From: Synechococcus sp. WH 7803
GTDB taxonomy: Bacteria > Cyanobacteriota > Cyanobacteriia > PCC-6307 > Cyanobiaceae
NCBI GenBank assembly: GCA_000063505.1
Contig: CT971583.1
Coordinates: 961,918-1,025,917, forward strand
Direction: 5' to 3'
Length of the DNA stretch: 64,000 nt
Part shown: positions 32,911 through 38,895 of the stretch, piece by piece
How positions within the stretch are numbered: the first letter of the stretch is position 1
Layout: every line of letters begins with the position of its first letter
Notes under the pieces: generated by a model
What the model was told of the DNA's origin: nothing
What the model saw: only the letters and a program-made list of their open reading frames with translations
Databases searched by the model: none
Position numbers and translations under genes: made by a program

Positions 32911-33345
32911 TCAAGCCCGGTGATACGGGCTCCCCTGCAGGATCGCCTGAGCCCGGAACAGCTGCTCGAGCAGCAGCAGCCGGGCCAGTTCATGGGGAAA
33001 GGTCATCGGTGAGAGGCTCAGTTGCCAGCGGGCGGCAGCTTTGAGCTCATCGGTGAGTCCATCGGCGCCGCCGATCACAAAGGCCAGGCGTTCATTGCCC
33101 AGACGCTCGAGCCGTTGTGCGAAGGGAATGGAGGCCAGCGGCGTGCCCTGCTCCATCAACATCACCGGGAGTTCATCGGATCGCAGAGCGGCACGGATCG
33201 CCTCCGCCTCCTTCTCTCTGCTGCTGTCCTTGAGTTCCACTACGGTGAGCCCAGGGAGTCGTTTGAGGTAGAGCTCCACCCCTTCCTGCACCCAACCCTT
33301 GCGCACCTTGCCAACAGCGATGATTCGGCAGCGGGAGACGTTCAT
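32911..33345 (-). CDS. rlmH: 23S rRNA pseudouridine-1915 N3-methyltransferase RlmH (144 aa)
   Basis: A small SPOUT methyltransferase. The S-adenosylmethionine-binding knot includes [16 protein letters not shown] and the C-terminal [19 protein letters not shown], with the usual end [10 protein letters not shown]. It methylates pseudouridine 1915 in helix 69 of 23S rRNA after subunit joining. It overlaps the upstream ATP-grasp gene by four bases. Confidence 0.95.
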
Positions 33346-34682
33346 GCCGCCACGTCGAGAATCCAGGTGTCCTTGAGGCTGCCGCCGCGGTTCAGATTCA
33401 CGATCGAAGAGCCAGGAGGTGCCACGCGGGTGAGTGCTCCTGGAAGCACCTGGGGCGTGTCTCCGAGCAATGAGACGGGCCGAAGATCAACGGCGCAGGG
33501 CTGGAGCCGTTCCCCAACCAACGTCGGCAGGGTGTGCAGCACCTGCGCTGGTTGGGCGATGAAACGCTCAGGTTGGGCCTGCAGAGAGGCGGTCATCGCA
33601 TTGCATTCAGCTGCGGAGGCGGTTGGACCATGGAGCATGTCGAGTCCCCCGGCACCATCCACCGGCTTCACCACCAACTGATTGAGATGCTGAAGCACAT
33701 GCTCCAGTTCTTTGGGATCTCGGCAACTGAACGTAGGCACCTGCTCGATCAGAGCCTCTTCACCGAGGTAGTAGCGGATCATGGCGCCAACGTGTCGATA
33801 CAGGGCCTTGTCGCTGCCGATCCCGGCCCCGGGGAGATTGGCGATCTGCACGTTTCCCTCTGCGGCCACCCGTTTCAGACCTGGCACGCCAAGCCAGGTA
33901 CTGGATCCGTCGGGCTCCATGCCGATGCGATCCTCGTTGCGGCGATAGATCACATCCACCGGCAGCTTCTGTTCGTGTTGAAGGAGCAACACCTGGTTTT
34001 GATCGCAATGCAGATCCTCTGGGCGCGCCAGGGCAATCCCCATCGCTGCAGCTAGAAAGCGGTGCTCACTGATCTCGGTGCTCACGGTGCTGGGGGTGAG
34101 CAACACGATCAGCGGATCATCCTGGTGAGGGCAGAGCTGATGCAGCGCAGCGCGCAGCTGCTGCAGACCCTCCTGAACTGGACGCGGTTGATGCGCTGTG
34201 TTCTTCGCGAGTCCGGCCGCCCAGGAAGCCTCTCGGATGCTCGCGGCGTAGCCATGGCCTCCGACCCGGCGGAGGTTGTCTTCCAGAACCCGCCAGCCCT
34301 GTTGGCTGCCACCGATCAAATCCAACCCGTTGATCAGACACCAGCAATGGTCGGGAGCAAAGAGACCGTGCAGGTCTGGCTGCCAGAGCGGTGACTCTTC
34401 AATCTCCTGCCTGGAGATGACGCCGTCCCGGAGGATCAGCTGGCGGCTGTACACGTCAGCCACAAAGCAATTAATCGCCTGGTGACGCTGCGAAATGCCT
34501 GCGCAGAGTCCGTCCCAGTCCGCTCCATGAATCACCCTGGGCCAGGGGTCATAAGGAACCACACGGTTCTGGATCTGCACCCCATGCCTGGCGAGGTGGT
34601 CATGGCCAGACGCCTGAAGTTCCTGCCATTCCTTCAATGCGATCTGCTGGAGGGGAGTGTGGATGGCCTCAGCCGGCGTCAT
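33342..34682 (-). CDS. Circularly permuted ATP-grasp family protein (446 aa)
   Basis: A member of the circularly permuted ATP-grasp (CP-ATPgrasp) proteins: it has the family elements [52 protein letters not shown] and the C-terminal ATP-binding-type [15 protein letters not shown]. Such proteins are thought to form amide bonds in an uncharacterised peptide-like pathway, often next to an alpha-E and a transglutaminase-like gene; neither partner lies beside it here. The ATG at 34682 is used; a longer start at 34715 lies inside the upstream gene. Confidence 0.85.
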
Positions 34683-35115
34683 CGTCTTCGAGCAGGAGCT
34701 GCCCGAAGGCCACATACAGGCTTTCCTCTTCGCTGCCGGGTGCCACGGCGGGCCGTTGCGGGCGGGTGTTTTTTCCGGGGCCGGCGTTGCGGGTCGGCGT
34801 TGGAGCCAGCGGGAAACTCGCCTCTTGGCGGGAGGGGCTCTGCGCTGGACCCCGCGGTTGTTGCCGCCGTTCCGCTTCAGCTTTGTTTTCGGCTTGGCGA
34901 AGGCGATCCATCAGGTGCTCGGGGACCGAGCCATCGGCGCTGACCTTCATCAGCTCATGGAACAGAGCCTGGGGGTTCTCTTCGGTTTCCACCTTGTGAC
35001 GCCGCTCGCTGGCGCGAGGGGAATCTCTGGTCTTTTCTGTCGGGGTCGGCAGCGCTTGCGGCAATTCCCGCCCCAGTTGTTTCAGCCGTTCGAGGCTGCG
35101 CGGGTCAAAGCTCAT
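34669..35115 (-). CDS. Hypothetical soluble protein, Pro/Arg-rich (148 aa)
   Basis: A charged N-terminal helix (SLERLKQLGRELPQAL) and a second helical segment (PQALFHELMKVSADGSVPEHLMDRLRQAE) are followed by a Pro/Arg-rich, likely disordered linker and a short acidic C-terminus. No domain is recognised. The ATG overlaps the pentapeptide-repeat stop (ATGA), and its own 3' end overlaps the ATP-grasp gene by 14 bases, so the three genes probably form one transcript. Confidence 0.6.
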   Translation of the reverse strand: MSFDPRSLERLKQLGRELPQALPTPTEKTRDSPRASERRHKVETEENPQALFHELMKVSADGSVPEHLMDRLRQAENKAEAERRQQPRGPAQSPSRQEASFPLAPTPTRNAGPGKNTRPQRPAVAPGSEEESLYVAFGQLLLEDDDAG

Positions 35116-35642: not shown

Positions 35643-36236
35643 TCACGCCCTGATGACTTTTTCAATGCGGTCAAGCCGCTCCTCGCGGGATTCCCAAAGT
35701 TCGATCAGTTGCGGTGCGTTCAGCGAGGGCATCACATTGAATCACTGGTCGCGGTAGATCTGTTTGAAAATGGCATCAACCTCACTGCGGTAGGGCAGGT
35801 CAATAGGGCGAATTCCATCGTCTTCCATCTCCACAGGCCATTGGTCGCTGATGGGGATGAAAACGATTAGATCCAGGTTCTGAAGTGTGTTTCTCACCCT
35901 GGGAACCATGGCTTCAACGAATGCATCGTTGATGTCAGTGGTGCCGTAGTCGGCGGTGTGTTGCGAGTATGCGATGTAATCCACTGGCGCGCGATCGAAG
36001 ATCACGCATTCGTCGCTGGATTGATAGGCATTCACTCGGCTGGCGTTGTAATACATCTGAATGCCGTTATGCAGGCAATTGCATTCCTGGCGAAATTGGA
36101 TGTCATAGCCCTCGTTGTGAAGCGCTCGAAAGGGCTCCTCCTCGCGCATGTAGTGAGGATGCCGTTTCACCCAATCCCAAACCAATGTGCTTTTTCCCTG
36201 GGAATGGGCTCCGCTGATCGCGATTCGCACGTGCAT
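35643..36236 (-). pseudogene. P-loop kinase-like gene interrupted by an in-frame TGA (AAA_28/NadR-type)
   Basis: From ATG 36236 the protein has a P-loop (GAHSQGKST, residues ~8-16), a DRAPVDYIAY acidic segment and the fold of small nucleotide or metabolite kinases (AAA_28 type), and ends at TGA 35742-35744 after 164 residues. Beyond that TGA the same frame continues for 32 clean codons (FNVMPSLNAPQLIELW... then a charged helix) to a second TGA at 35643. Those residues look like the natural C-terminus. It is either a recent nonsense mutation, a readthrough gene or a sequence error; which cannot be told here. Confidence 0.7.
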
Positions 36237-36459: not shown

Positions 36460-36488
36460 TTGACAATAATGCCGCAAGACACTAAAAG
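36460..36488 (+). promoter_or_regulatory. Probable sigma-70-type promoter for the Nif11-like gene
   Basis: A perfect -35 box TTGACA (36460-36465) is followed after 17 bases by a weak -10 box TAAAAG (36483-36488). Transcription would begin near 36495, about 16 bases before the ATG at 36511, which fits a short leader. Confidence 0.55.
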
Positions 36489-36510: not shown

Positions 36511-36816
36511 ATGTCACTCGATCAATTCAAAGCTTTTTTGGAGGCTGTTGTCGCAGACTCAACTCTTCATCAGAAGATGGACGCTGCTACCAGCGAAGAA
36601 GATGTCGTGGCCATTGCTTGTTCGTCTGGCTTTGAAGTCACAATTGAAGACCTGAAAAGCGGACAGACTCCTGCGGGTGAGGAGCTTTCCGATGACGAAA
36701 TGCTGAATGCTGCAGGCGGGGCTGGAAGTAATGAATGGAATTGGAAAACGCAAACTGGCGCAGTTGCAGTTTTGTACGGCACGCCTGGAGTTGTTCCGCC
36801 AAGTATTTATAAATGA
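36511..36816 (+). CDS. Nif11/prochlorosin-like leader peptide precursor, core without Cys (101 aa)
   Basis: The leader (residues ~1-70) follows the Nif11 pattern: an N-terminal helix MSLDQFKAFLEAVVADSTL, a FEVTIEDLKS segment and the LSDDEMLNAAGG double-glycine end (Gly69-Gly70) where a C39 peptidase-type exporter would cut. The 31-residue core is rich in Trp, Asn, Tyr and Pro and has no Cys, so it cannot become a lanthipeptide like known prochlorosins. The ATG at 36511 is preferred because a promoter lies just before it; upstream ATG/TTG codons would lengthen it. No LanM-type or other modification enzyme gene is in the window. Confidence 0.85.
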   Translation: MSLDQFKAFLEAVVADSTLHQKMDAATSEEDVVAIACSSGFEVTIEDLKSGQTPAGEELSDDEMLNAAGGAGSNEWNWKTQTGAVAVLYGTPGVVPPSIYK

Positions 36817-37380
36817 TCATTTTCGATAAAGCATATTGTTCCTAGCCGAAATTGGCTTTGCATATGTATGAAATGGATTTGATATAGTTTTTATTGGCTG
36901 AAGATGATTGGAAATTTATGCTCTTTATGCTTTATATTTTTAACTCTGTGCTTGCATTGCCAAGCAAAATGTTTGTCGTTTTTTAGGGCAGCTAATGCAC
37001 GTTGCTTACGGTTCATCTGCCGAGTTGGGGATCTCAAGAAGCCAGCTACAGCAAAAATTCATCTTCGGTATAGCTGAGTTTTTGCTGTCTCAGCAAATGC
37101 CCCTTGCGCTTCGTGCCAACGACTCCAATGCTTTCAAGGCTTGACTGTCTCTTGGAATCGAATGGCTTGGAGAGCCTGCTGTTGTTGGGCTGATGCTTGA
37201 TGGGCTGAACCCAATCCCCGCGACAGACGAAGCAGATAGGCTGGTCGGTTGGCGCCTGGGGGTAAGCCTCTAGGCCAGCTGGGGGAGTCAGACGGCTGAA
37301 ATCGGGAAAATAAATAGCTCAGTTTGCCGATGTGCGATTCGGCGGTTTTTGCCACTTTGAACAAACCGAGACATAACCCC
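36817..37380. other. AT-rich intergenic region with inverted repeats, no clear gene
   Basis: About 560 bases of lower GC than the neighbours. It contains a perfect ten-base inverted repeat ACAGCAAAAA/TTTTTGCTGT (37048-37057 and 37079-37088), a small hairpin TGCTTG/CAAGCA (36949-36966) and a weak terminator-like hairpin GCCGA/TCGGC followed by GGTTTTT (37326-37350). A 49-codon ORF at 36995-37144 and others are open, but none is convincing. It may be a remnant of a deleted gene. Confidence 0.5.
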
Positions 37381-37864: not shown

Positions 37865-38127
37865 CTATTTGGCAACACTCTGGTATCACCCAATTTTAGT
37901 TCATTATCAATAAATCTGGAAGCCGCTCTGCCCGATGGAGTAAGGCAGTCATCCTTTCGCCAGTGTCACGCACGCCTAGCCAACAGCATCTGCCATATGG
38001 GAATGATCGCTCTATGAGTCGGGGACGCTTGATCCTGCTTTGTACTCAAGAGTCGGCAAACTCCTCATCACTCGATTGCAGGCGGGATGCGCCTTCATCC
38101 GCCGATAGCCGTTCGCGTCTTTCACCG

Positions 38128-38895
38128 TCAAGAGGGTGGCAACAACTGCTCTTCCAGCAGCATGTTGAATCCCAACAGTTGTTCATCACTGAGTTGCTGC
38201 CGGGACCCAACCTGGAAGTTGCTTTGCAGAAAGTCGCGGGCTTGCTGTTGCTGCCAATTGAGGCGCTTCAGGATTTCATCGCACTGGTTCACAAGGTCCG
38301 AGCGTCTTAGGGGGATCGCCGCTGTTCGGGCGTCACTCGAGGCTGGTAGGTCCCGCAGGCGCTTGAGATAAGCCACGAGATCACTGAAGCGTGTGAGGCG
38401 ATGTCTGCTGCTGTGCCCAAAGGCTCGCTCCAGATAGATGGATTCATTGGCTCGATCCCAGCCGATGCGTTGCAACTCAAGGTCGATGGCAGTGAGTTCT
38501 TCGCTCCAATCGTCTGGATCGGTGGGTGCTTCGTTTACTGCGTTCGTGGGAGCGTCTGGCTCTGGAGTGCTGACCGCCGGTGGAGAGGCTTGATCCACGG
38601 CAGGTTGGCTGGGTTCGATCGCCTTGGGTGGTTTCTGATCGGAAGCCGGTCTTGCGTTCTGTGCAGTCTGATCCTGGTTCTGGCTGTTGCGCCGCACAAG
38701 CTCCTTGTGGCTGGCTGCTGTTGCTTTGGGCGTGTCCAGTCGTTGCAGCAGCCTGGCGATGGCCTGATCTTCTGCATCCGTTGCCGTGGGCGCTTCGCCC
38801 AGGGCACTGCCCAGTGACCTGTCGCCGTCAAAGGCTTCCACGCGAACAATGCAGCGCTGGTCGTTGTGATGGCAAAGCTGGACTTGCGTTTTCAT
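38128..38895 (-). CDS. Hypothetical protein with a Pro-rich linker (255 aa)
   Basis: An N-terminal domain of ~60 residues (CIVRVEAFDGDRSLGSALGE ... DQAIARLLQRL) is joined by a long disordered Pro/Ala/Asp linker to a C-terminal helical domain (~residues 135-255) with SRHRLTRFSDLVAYLKRLR and RQQLSDEQLLGFNMLLEEQL. This architecture recurs in cyanobacteria but its function is not known to me. Confidence 0.65.
   Translation of the reverse strand: MKTQVQLCHHNDQRCIVRVEAFDGDRSLGSALGEAPTATDAEDQAIARLLQRLDTPKATAASHKELVRRNSQNQDQTAQNARPASDQKPPKAIEPSQPAVDQASPPAVSTPEPDAPTNAVNEAPTDPDDWSEELTAIDLELQRIGWDRANESIYLERAFGHSSRHRLTRFSDLVAYLKRLRDLPASSDARTAAIPLRRSDLVNQCDEILKRLNWQQQQARDFLQSNFQVGSRQQLSDEQLLGFNMLLEEQLLPPS

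What the first reader, a model, noticed from the sequence alone, without database searches (positions are those of the whole stretch)
36511..36816. Orphan Nif11/prochlorosin-like precursor with a Cys-free core
The leader ends in LSDDEMLNAAGG as in prochlorosins, but the 31-residue core has no Cys and so cannot form lanthionine rings. It carries Trp, Tyr, Asn and Pro instead. It has its own likely promoter and no modification enzyme in the window. It could be a substrate of a distant enzyme, an unmodified bacteriocin, or a degenerate prochlorosin.
Basis: partly seen in the sequence, partly recalled or inferred. Interest (0 to 1): 0.68.

Follow-up and report, generated by a model that had tools for sequence, protein, structure and literature searches.

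The report
Cysteine-free prochlorosin-type secreted peptide precursor
A marine cyanobacterium keeps a gene for a small peptide that carries the export tag of ring-forming prochlorosins but has neither the cysteines nor the enzyme needed for rings, so it is probably released as a plain linear peptide; this is a modest twist on a known peptide family.

Summary
Window 36511-36816 (+) encodes a 101-residue Nif11-leader (N11P) precursor: TIGR03798 85 bits against a 32.3 cut-off, leader end LSDDEMLNAAGG, 31-residue Cys-free core. The genome has no LanM or YcaO match. The only radical SAM peptide maturase recognised is GrrM, beside its own GrrA. There is one C39 peptidase/ABC exporter with three other GG-leader precursors. 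A paralogue with nearly the same leader end is also Cys-free.

Among relatives, GG-Nif11 cores are Cys-free in 14 of 17 genes from LanM-less genomes and 12 of 101 from LanM-bearing ones (ancestry not corrected). On the target's own branch, leader changes pile up at third codon positions (21 of 33, against 12 of 49 and 6 of 54), so it is not simply decaying. At the same place a LanM-bearing relative has a prochlorosin array and another relative has nothing.

Best reading: a functional precursor exported unmodified by the C39 transporter; an N11P variant, not a prochlorosin. Export, cleavage and lack of modification are inferred. The core has no homologue; its activity is unknown.

The parts
36511..36816 (+). 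Precursor gene, 101 codons plus TGA
   Evidence: TIGR03798 85.2 bits vs cut-off 32.3; Nif11 60.4 bits
36511..36720 (+). Nif11-type leader, 70 residues, ending LSDDEMLNAAGG (Leu at -12, Met at -7, Ala at -4)
   Evidence: sequence; C39 recognition positions -4/-7/-12 from passages of PMC6363468; third-position-biased changes on its own branch
36721..36813 (+). Core, 31 residues, no Cys; predicted disordered
   Evidence: sequence; no homologue beyond chance in 400 genomes; pLDDT below 50 over residues 53-101 (shallow 7-row alignment)
36460..36488 (+). Promoter-like TTGACA - 17 bases - TAAAAG
   Evidence: read from the sequence; not listed by the scan; candidate only
37091..37335 (+). Decayed copy of a small island gene / dispersed repeat downstream of the precursor
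   Evidence: 7 matches in the own genome and matches in 3 of 13 other genomes searched; in-frame stop read by eye against the longer copy at L186 13982-14320
37902..38173 (.). Segment shared with the prochlorosin array of relative G246 (88% over 272 bases)
35742..36236 (-). Left flank: AAA_28 gene, conserved neighbour in two close relatives
   Evidence: Pfam; 96-98% identity in G204 and G246
38128..38895 (-). Right flank: 255-residue protein without a Pfam match, followed by TerC

Best explanation
The gene makes a working Nif11-leader (N11P) precursor whose leader is recognised and cut after Gly-Gly by the genome's only C39 peptidase/ABC exporter (encoded about 435 kb away), releasing a linear 31-residue peptide without lanthionine, azole or cyclophane modification. 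It works like the double-glycine secreted small proteins of Synechococcus elongatus (EbfG, secreted with the help of PteB), using a prochlorosin-type leader. Shown: the precursor, its Cys-free core, no LanM or YcaO match, the exporter gene with its C39 motifs (read by eye), and codon-level constraint on the leader. Inferred: expression, cleavage, export, absence of modification, and any signalling or antagonistic role.
For: No LanM and no YcaO match in the genome. One C39 exporter with NHLM-type ABC2 and HlyD partners and three GG-leader precursors. The target meets the LahT recognition positions (-4 A, -7 M, -12 L; passages of PMC6363468). Position -6 is hydrophobic in the target (L), in its paralogue (M) and in the three exporter-linked precursors (M), whereas it is Glu in 86 of 101 leaders of LanM-bearing genomes and in 7 of 19 of LanM-less ones. 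The paralogue with leader end LSDDEMMNAAGG is also Cys-free and groups with the target at 99/80. Cys-free cores in 14 of 17 genes from LanM-less genomes vs 12 of 101 from LanM-bearing genomes. C39 domains of the canonical kind in 7 of 8 LanM-less genomes with GG-Nif11 genes vs 7 of 16 in which I found none (p 0.08). Leader changes unique to the target, by codon position: 12 of 49, 6 of 54, 21 of 33.
Against: No transcript or peptide evidence. Two exoproteome papers that include WH7803 mention neither Nif11 nor bacteriocins in the main text (term searches; supplements not available). The exporter is unlinked, and its own precursors have leaders that score only 22-24 bits with TIGR03798, below the cut-off. 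One of the exporter-linked positions differs (Thr at -12). The C39 association is not significant, and one LanM-less genome with a GG-Nif11 gene (G075) has only C39 matches in proteins of about 1000 residues. The Cys-free association may follow shared ancestry: only two independent pairs on starred branches, too few to test. 12 of 101 genes in LanM-bearing genomes are Cys-free too, among them 2 of the 6 in the G246 array at this site. The core shows no evidence of selection, since nothing aligns to it.
Confidence: 0.45

Rival explanations
1. Relic of a prochlorosin locus: the lineage lost ProcM, Cys codons drifted away, and the gene is on its way to becoming a pseudogene.
For: The same site holds a six-gene prochlorosin-type array in G246, which has LanM, and is empty in G204. 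Neighbouring sequence at 37091-37335 is a decayed gene copy. A third GG-Nif11 copy in the same genome is frameshifted (L187 6657-6852). The target's end branch is long (0.76 vs 0.26 for the paralogue). A Cys-free 31-mer is likely at the Cys rate of LanM-less cores (0.77).
Against: The ORF is intact and its leader carries third-position-biased changes on its own branch. The tree places the leader with other LanM-less, Cys-free leaders and not with the G246 array (88/54), although grouping with the array is not rejected (p-AU 0.37).
Confidence: 0.25
2. Substrate of an unrecognised or distant modifying enzyme acting on Trp, Tyr, Asn or other residues, for example a cyclophane-forming radical SAM enzyme, a halogenase or the JmjC-type protein next to the exporter.
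For: The genome has a GrrM-type cyclophane-forming radical SAM maturase (TIGR04261, 570 bits) and a JmjC_2 protein divergently placed near the exporter operon (L055 11813-12994). The core has a Trp-Asn-Trp stretch. A circularly permuted ATP-grasp gene lies three genes to the left (33345-34715).
Against: GrrM has its own GrrA precursor just upstream (97.5 bits), and the target has no GrrA match. Of 15 radical SAM matches, 12 best match non-maturase families (three of them below that family's cut-off), one is GrrM and two (L048, L054) had no match at 1e-40. The ATP-grasp gene keeps its place in G204, which lacks the precursor, so it is not tied to it.
Confidence: 0.15
3. Not an export substrate: the Nif11 protein acts inside the cell as a whole.
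For: Eight of the eleven Nif11 matches in the genome are neither the target, the paralogue nor the frameshifted copy; the six of these that I read have no GG end.
Against: The GG end with hydrophobic -4/-7/-12 is that of exported precursors; the DNA match to the paralogue is confined to 36679-36719 and ends at the GG; the core is predicted disordered.
Confidence: 0.1

Closest known systems
Prochlorosins / synechococsins (ProcA/SyncA)
   Same: Nif11 leader with a Gly-Gly end, hypervariable core; same chromosomal site as a prochlorosin-type array in a relative
   Different: No Cys in the core, no LanM match in the genome; -6 is Leu where Glu is usual
N11P family TIGR03798 (Haft et al. 2010, PMC2887384, passages seen)
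   Same: Scores well above the family cut-off; that paper already reports N11Ps beside the ABC exporter set in Synechococcus sp. WH 7803
   Different: This gene lies away from the exporter and from any recognised modifying enzyme
Cyanobacterial bacteriocin survey (Wang et al. 2011, PMC3140520, passages seen)
   Same: Counts three bacteriocin clusters in Synechococcus WH 7803 (table row)
   Different: Whether this gene is among its precursors could not be seen (supplements not available)
EbfG1-4 and the C39 transporter PteB in Synechococcus elongatus (PMC4997328, abstract and passages seen)
   Same: Double-glycine small proteins, C39-dependent efficient secretion, mature parts without homologues in other cyanobacteria
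   Different: EbfG genes lie beside the transporter gene and are 6-7 kDa when mature; homology not tested here
LahT-type C39 exporters and their Nif11 substrates (PMC6363468, passages seen)
   Same: Recognition by hydrophobic residues at -4, -7, -12, all present here
   Different: The exporter of this genome is untested

Membership tests
N11P (TIGR03798 Nif11-leader precursors) | Profile score above the curated cut-off | tested here: met
   85.2 bits vs 32.3
N11P (TIGR03798 Nif11-leader precursors) | Gly-Gly processing site at the end of the leader | tested here: met
   Gly69-Gly70; sequence
Prochlorosin | Cys in the core for (methyl)lanthionine rings | tested here: not met
   No Cys in 31 residues; sequence
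Prochlorosin | ProcM-like LanM in the genome | tested here: not met
   PF13575: no match in the 2366980-base genome; 26 of 400 family genomes match
Prochlorosin | Lanthionine in the product | not testable with these tools
   needs mass spectrometry
C39/PCAT exporter substrate | Hydrophobic -4, -7, -12 and GG at -2/-1 | tested here: met
   A-4, M-7, L-12 in the sequence; positions from PMC6363468 passages
C39/PCAT exporter substrate | An exporter with a C39 domain in the genome | tested here: met
   PF03412 106.6 bits, 744-residue ORF; Cys, His, Asp motifs read by eye
C39/PCAT exporter substrate | Cleavage and export | not testable with these tools
   needs an experiment
GrrA-type cyclophane peptide | GrrA/OscA profile match | tested here: not met
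   No TIGR04260 match for the target at E up to 1
Azole/thioamide (YcaO) peptide | YcaO in the genome | tested here: not met
   PF02624: no match

The most novel reading that the evidence does not exclude
Picocyanobacteria without ProcM keep a separate line of prochlorosin-type leaders that deliver fast-changing, Cys-free linear peptides through a C39 exporter: the leader/core scheme working without any ring-forming enzyme, for signalling or competition.
Probability: 0.3. Interest if true: 0.6.

Novelty: new variant of a known kind. Interest (0 to 1): 0.4.

Why it matters
The biological function of prochlorosins is unknown (PMC10783134, abstract). A genome that keeps the leader under constraint but lacks both the core Cys and the synthetase gives a natural test of whether the rings are needed: if these peptides are exported and active, the leader/export scheme has a use without lanthionines. 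If the strain is WH7803, as recalled, gene removal is feasible (CRISPR loss-of-function mutants: PMC10651935, start of abstract in the search listing).

Tried and rejected
Core homologues: a core-only search of 400 family genomes gave 66 bits for the gene itself and at best 16.9 bits (E 0.03) elsewhere; 77 of 400 had something at E up to 1, as expected by chance. Scans of genome contigs and viral contigs with the whole protein confirmed no relative; those tools may leave out records of the own genome or one very near it.

Shared motif between the two cores in the genome (GVVPPS / GIAPPS): 720 of 20000 shuffles score as high, and 1618 of 10000 with softer gap costs; not accepted. One other comparison, with the 8-residue core QIDWEWLG of the G246 array, had 0.016 among 13 tested; not accepted either.

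LanM relic in G204: first taken as a broken LanM from the weak PF13575 match; rejected because the match lies in an open 390-residue ORF inside a YcaO/TfuA/ThiF cluster.

Darobactin-like or triceptide reading of Trp-Asn-Trp, and the X-Tyr-Gly splicease motif, were recalled leads; no fitting enzyme other than GrrM was recognised.

RNA element: one sub-threshold Rfam match (17.5 bits vs 65), taken as chance.

Descent of the target from the G246 array: neither shown nor rejected. A six-row clade of LanM-less leaders: not rejected, not shown (p-AU 0.34).

Link of the downstream repeat to GG-Nif11 genes: it lies beside or among them in G246 and G204, but no such gene was found in the own-genome stretch or the three G231 stretches with several copies.

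Rows dropped before the Cys count: rows without GG at the boundary, among them four from LanM-less genomes (two with Cys, two without, as printed), the VELEGHLW-core family, two YcaO-cluster precursors of G204 (Cys-free), and three peptides from LanM-less genomes under 90% complete (3 of 3 with Cys). Two two-leader ORFs of G134 count twice (16 of 19) and once (14 of 17). The LanM-bearing sample covers 20 of 25 such genomes, some of them under 90% complete, with 78 of 101 genes from six of them. The LanM-less sample is 24 genomes that I chose; one search's match list was cut, and I read the best match of each of the 16 genomes counted as lacking a GG end. One of the seven of these with a C39 match (G158) has it in a 272-residue frame.

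Full report
What is there. The window comes from a single-contig genome of 2366980 bases; the size and a remark in Haft et al. (PMC2887384, passage) suggest Synechococcus WH7803, but the name is recalled and came from no record title. The ORF at 36511-36816 (+) is a 101-residue precursor. TIGR03798 scores it 85.2 bits against a cut-off of 32.3, Pfam Nif11 60.4 against 23.8. Leader residues 1-70 end LSDDEMLNAAGG. The 31-residue core has no Cys.

Enzymes in the genome. LanM (PF13575) has no match, while the same model matches in 26 of 400 family genomes; one of these, G204, has only a partial match in an open 390-residue ORF, so I count 25. YcaO has no match. Of 15 radical SAM matches, one is a GrrM/OscB cyclophane-forming maturase with its own GrrA precursor beside it; 12 best match non-maturase families, three of them below that family's cut-off, and two had no match at 1e-40. 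Other enzyme kinds such as halogenases or epimerases were not searched. A circularly permuted ATP-grasp gene lies three genes to the left (33345-34715), in the same place in G204, which lacks the precursor.

An exporter. The genome has one C39 match: a 744-residue ABC protein with an NHLM-type ABC2 partner and a HlyD protein above its NHLP-secretion cut-off (157.7 vs 156.2), next to three GG-leader precursors with Ala/Gly-rich Cys-free cores and leaders ending DDELMAAAGG. The two ABC proteins match the NHLM models strongly but below their equivalog cut-offs. Haft et al. already note N11Ps beside this exporter set in WH 7803. The C39 domain keeps Cys, His and Asp motifs (read by eye). The target satisfies the -4, -7, -12 recognition positions described for LahT (passages of PMC6363468); the exporter-linked leaders have Thr at -12. 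Position -6 is hydrophobic in the target, its paralogue and the exporter-linked precursors, and Glu in 86 of 101 leaders from LanM-bearing genomes.

A paralogue and a broken copy. A second intact precursor at G000 364679-365002 (-) ends its leader LSDDEMMNAAGG and has a Cys-free 37-residue core. The two leaders are identical at 35 of 70 residues and group with support 99/80. A third, frameshifted copy lies at 1756656-1756851 (-); its would-be core is Cys-free too.

Comparison with relatives. 47 of 400 family genomes match the protein at E 1e-5 or better, in the listed matches mainly through the leader (the list is cut). With the core alone, nothing but the gene itself stands out. I collected GG-Nif11 genes from 20 LanM-bearing genomes and from 8 LanM-less genomes that are at least 90% complete. 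Cores are Cys-free in 12 of 101 and 14 of 17 genes respectively (Fisher 9e-9; Cys rate 9.5% and 0.8%). By genome, over half of the genes are Cys-free in 7 of 8 LanM-less and 1 of 20 LanM-bearing genomes. These p-values ignore ancestry: LanM-less leaders cluster on the tree (10 changes against 17 in shuffles), and only two independent pairs are available, too few for a test. Dropped rows are listed in Tried and rejected. Among 24 LanM-less genomes, canonical C39 matches occur in 7 of 8 with GG-Nif11 genes and in 7 of 16 in which I found none (p 0.08).

Is the gene alive? Sites where the paralogue and a G204 leader agree have changed in the target at 12 of 49 first, 6 of 54 second and 21 of 33 third codon positions. 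That is expected of a protein under constraint and not of free drift. It concerns the leader only; the core has no relative to compare. The end branch is long, so some relaxation is possible.

The site. In relatives G246 and G204 the flanking genes keep their order. Between the AAA_28 gene and the 255-residue gene, G246 (with LanM) carries about 12 kb with six prochlorosin-type genes, two of the six Cys-free, and other GG-ending small genes; G204 has about 100 bases; this genome has 1.9 kb with the single Cys-free gene. Parts of the 1.9 kb match the G246 array (37098-37334 at 81%, 37902-38173 at 88%). The former is a dispersed, decayed small gene, with 7 matches in this genome and matches in 3 of 13 other genomes searched. 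It lies beside or among GG-Nif11 genes in G246 and G204, but not in the own-genome and G231 stretches that I read. So the site is a variable island position. The target leader nevertheless groups with LanM-less leaders of other genomes and not with the local array, though weakly (88/54), and grouping with the array is not rejected (p-AU 0.37).

Fold. A 7-row AlphaFold2 model shows a helical leader and a disordered core (mean pLDDT 60.5, residues 53-101 below 50).

How it most likely works. The leader is bound by the C39 domain, cut after GG and the linear core exported. The closest working model is EbfG/PteB of Synechococcus elongatus (PMC4997328, abstract and passages), where double-glycine small proteins, secreted efficiently only with an active C39 peptidase, are needed for biofilm formation. 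For the gene studied here, export, cleavage, lack of modification and function are inferred.

In print. Nine literature searches were made; those on this question were. In the passages I saw, Cys-lacking cores are mentioned once, for two substrates in a LanM-bearing strain (PMC10783134); N11Ps near the exporter of WH 7803 are mentioned in PMC2887384, and PMC3140520 counts three bacteriocin clusters in WH 7803 (table row). I found no description of this gene or of Cys-free GG-Nif11 genes as a feature of LanM-less genomes; only open-licence papers are held, and supplements could not be read.

Verdict. The gene is a member of N11P and fails two defining features of prochlorosins. It is an interesting variant, not a new kind.

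Noticed in passing
L189 and L093 (G204 1842000-1868500): A likely thioamide- or azole-type peptide cluster: C39 exporter, ThiF-rhodanese protein, MoaD/SAMP1-like small protein ending GG (below those families' cut-offs), TfuA, YcaO, a 390-residue ORF with a partial DUF4135 match, and two near-identical Nif11-leader precursors with an Ala/Gly/Thr-rich core.
   Followed up: partly
L055 2760-12997 (G000 556-566 kb): C39/ABC2/HlyD exporter operon with three similar GG-leader precursors whose cores are Ala/Gly/Thr-rich and Cys-free, next to a YadA-like protein and a divergent JmjC_2 protein; their leaders score below the Nif11-leader cut-off.
   Followed up: partly
L166 4992-13074 (G246): The prochlorosin-type array of G246 also holds GG-ending small proteins outside the Nif11 models: one with a class IIb bacteriocin match just under its cut-off (20.2 vs 21.5 bits) and others with a shared DEFKALRD-type start.
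   Followed up: no
L062 and L031 (G156): Two GG-Nif11 genes of one LanM-less genome have diverged leaders but 12-residue Cys-free cores with the same last seven residues (GVGNSGL), which hints at selection on a linear core.
   Followed up: no
window 37091-37335: Dispersed repeat (decayed small gene), 5 to 13 matches in each of four related genomes and none in ten others searched.
   Followed up: partly
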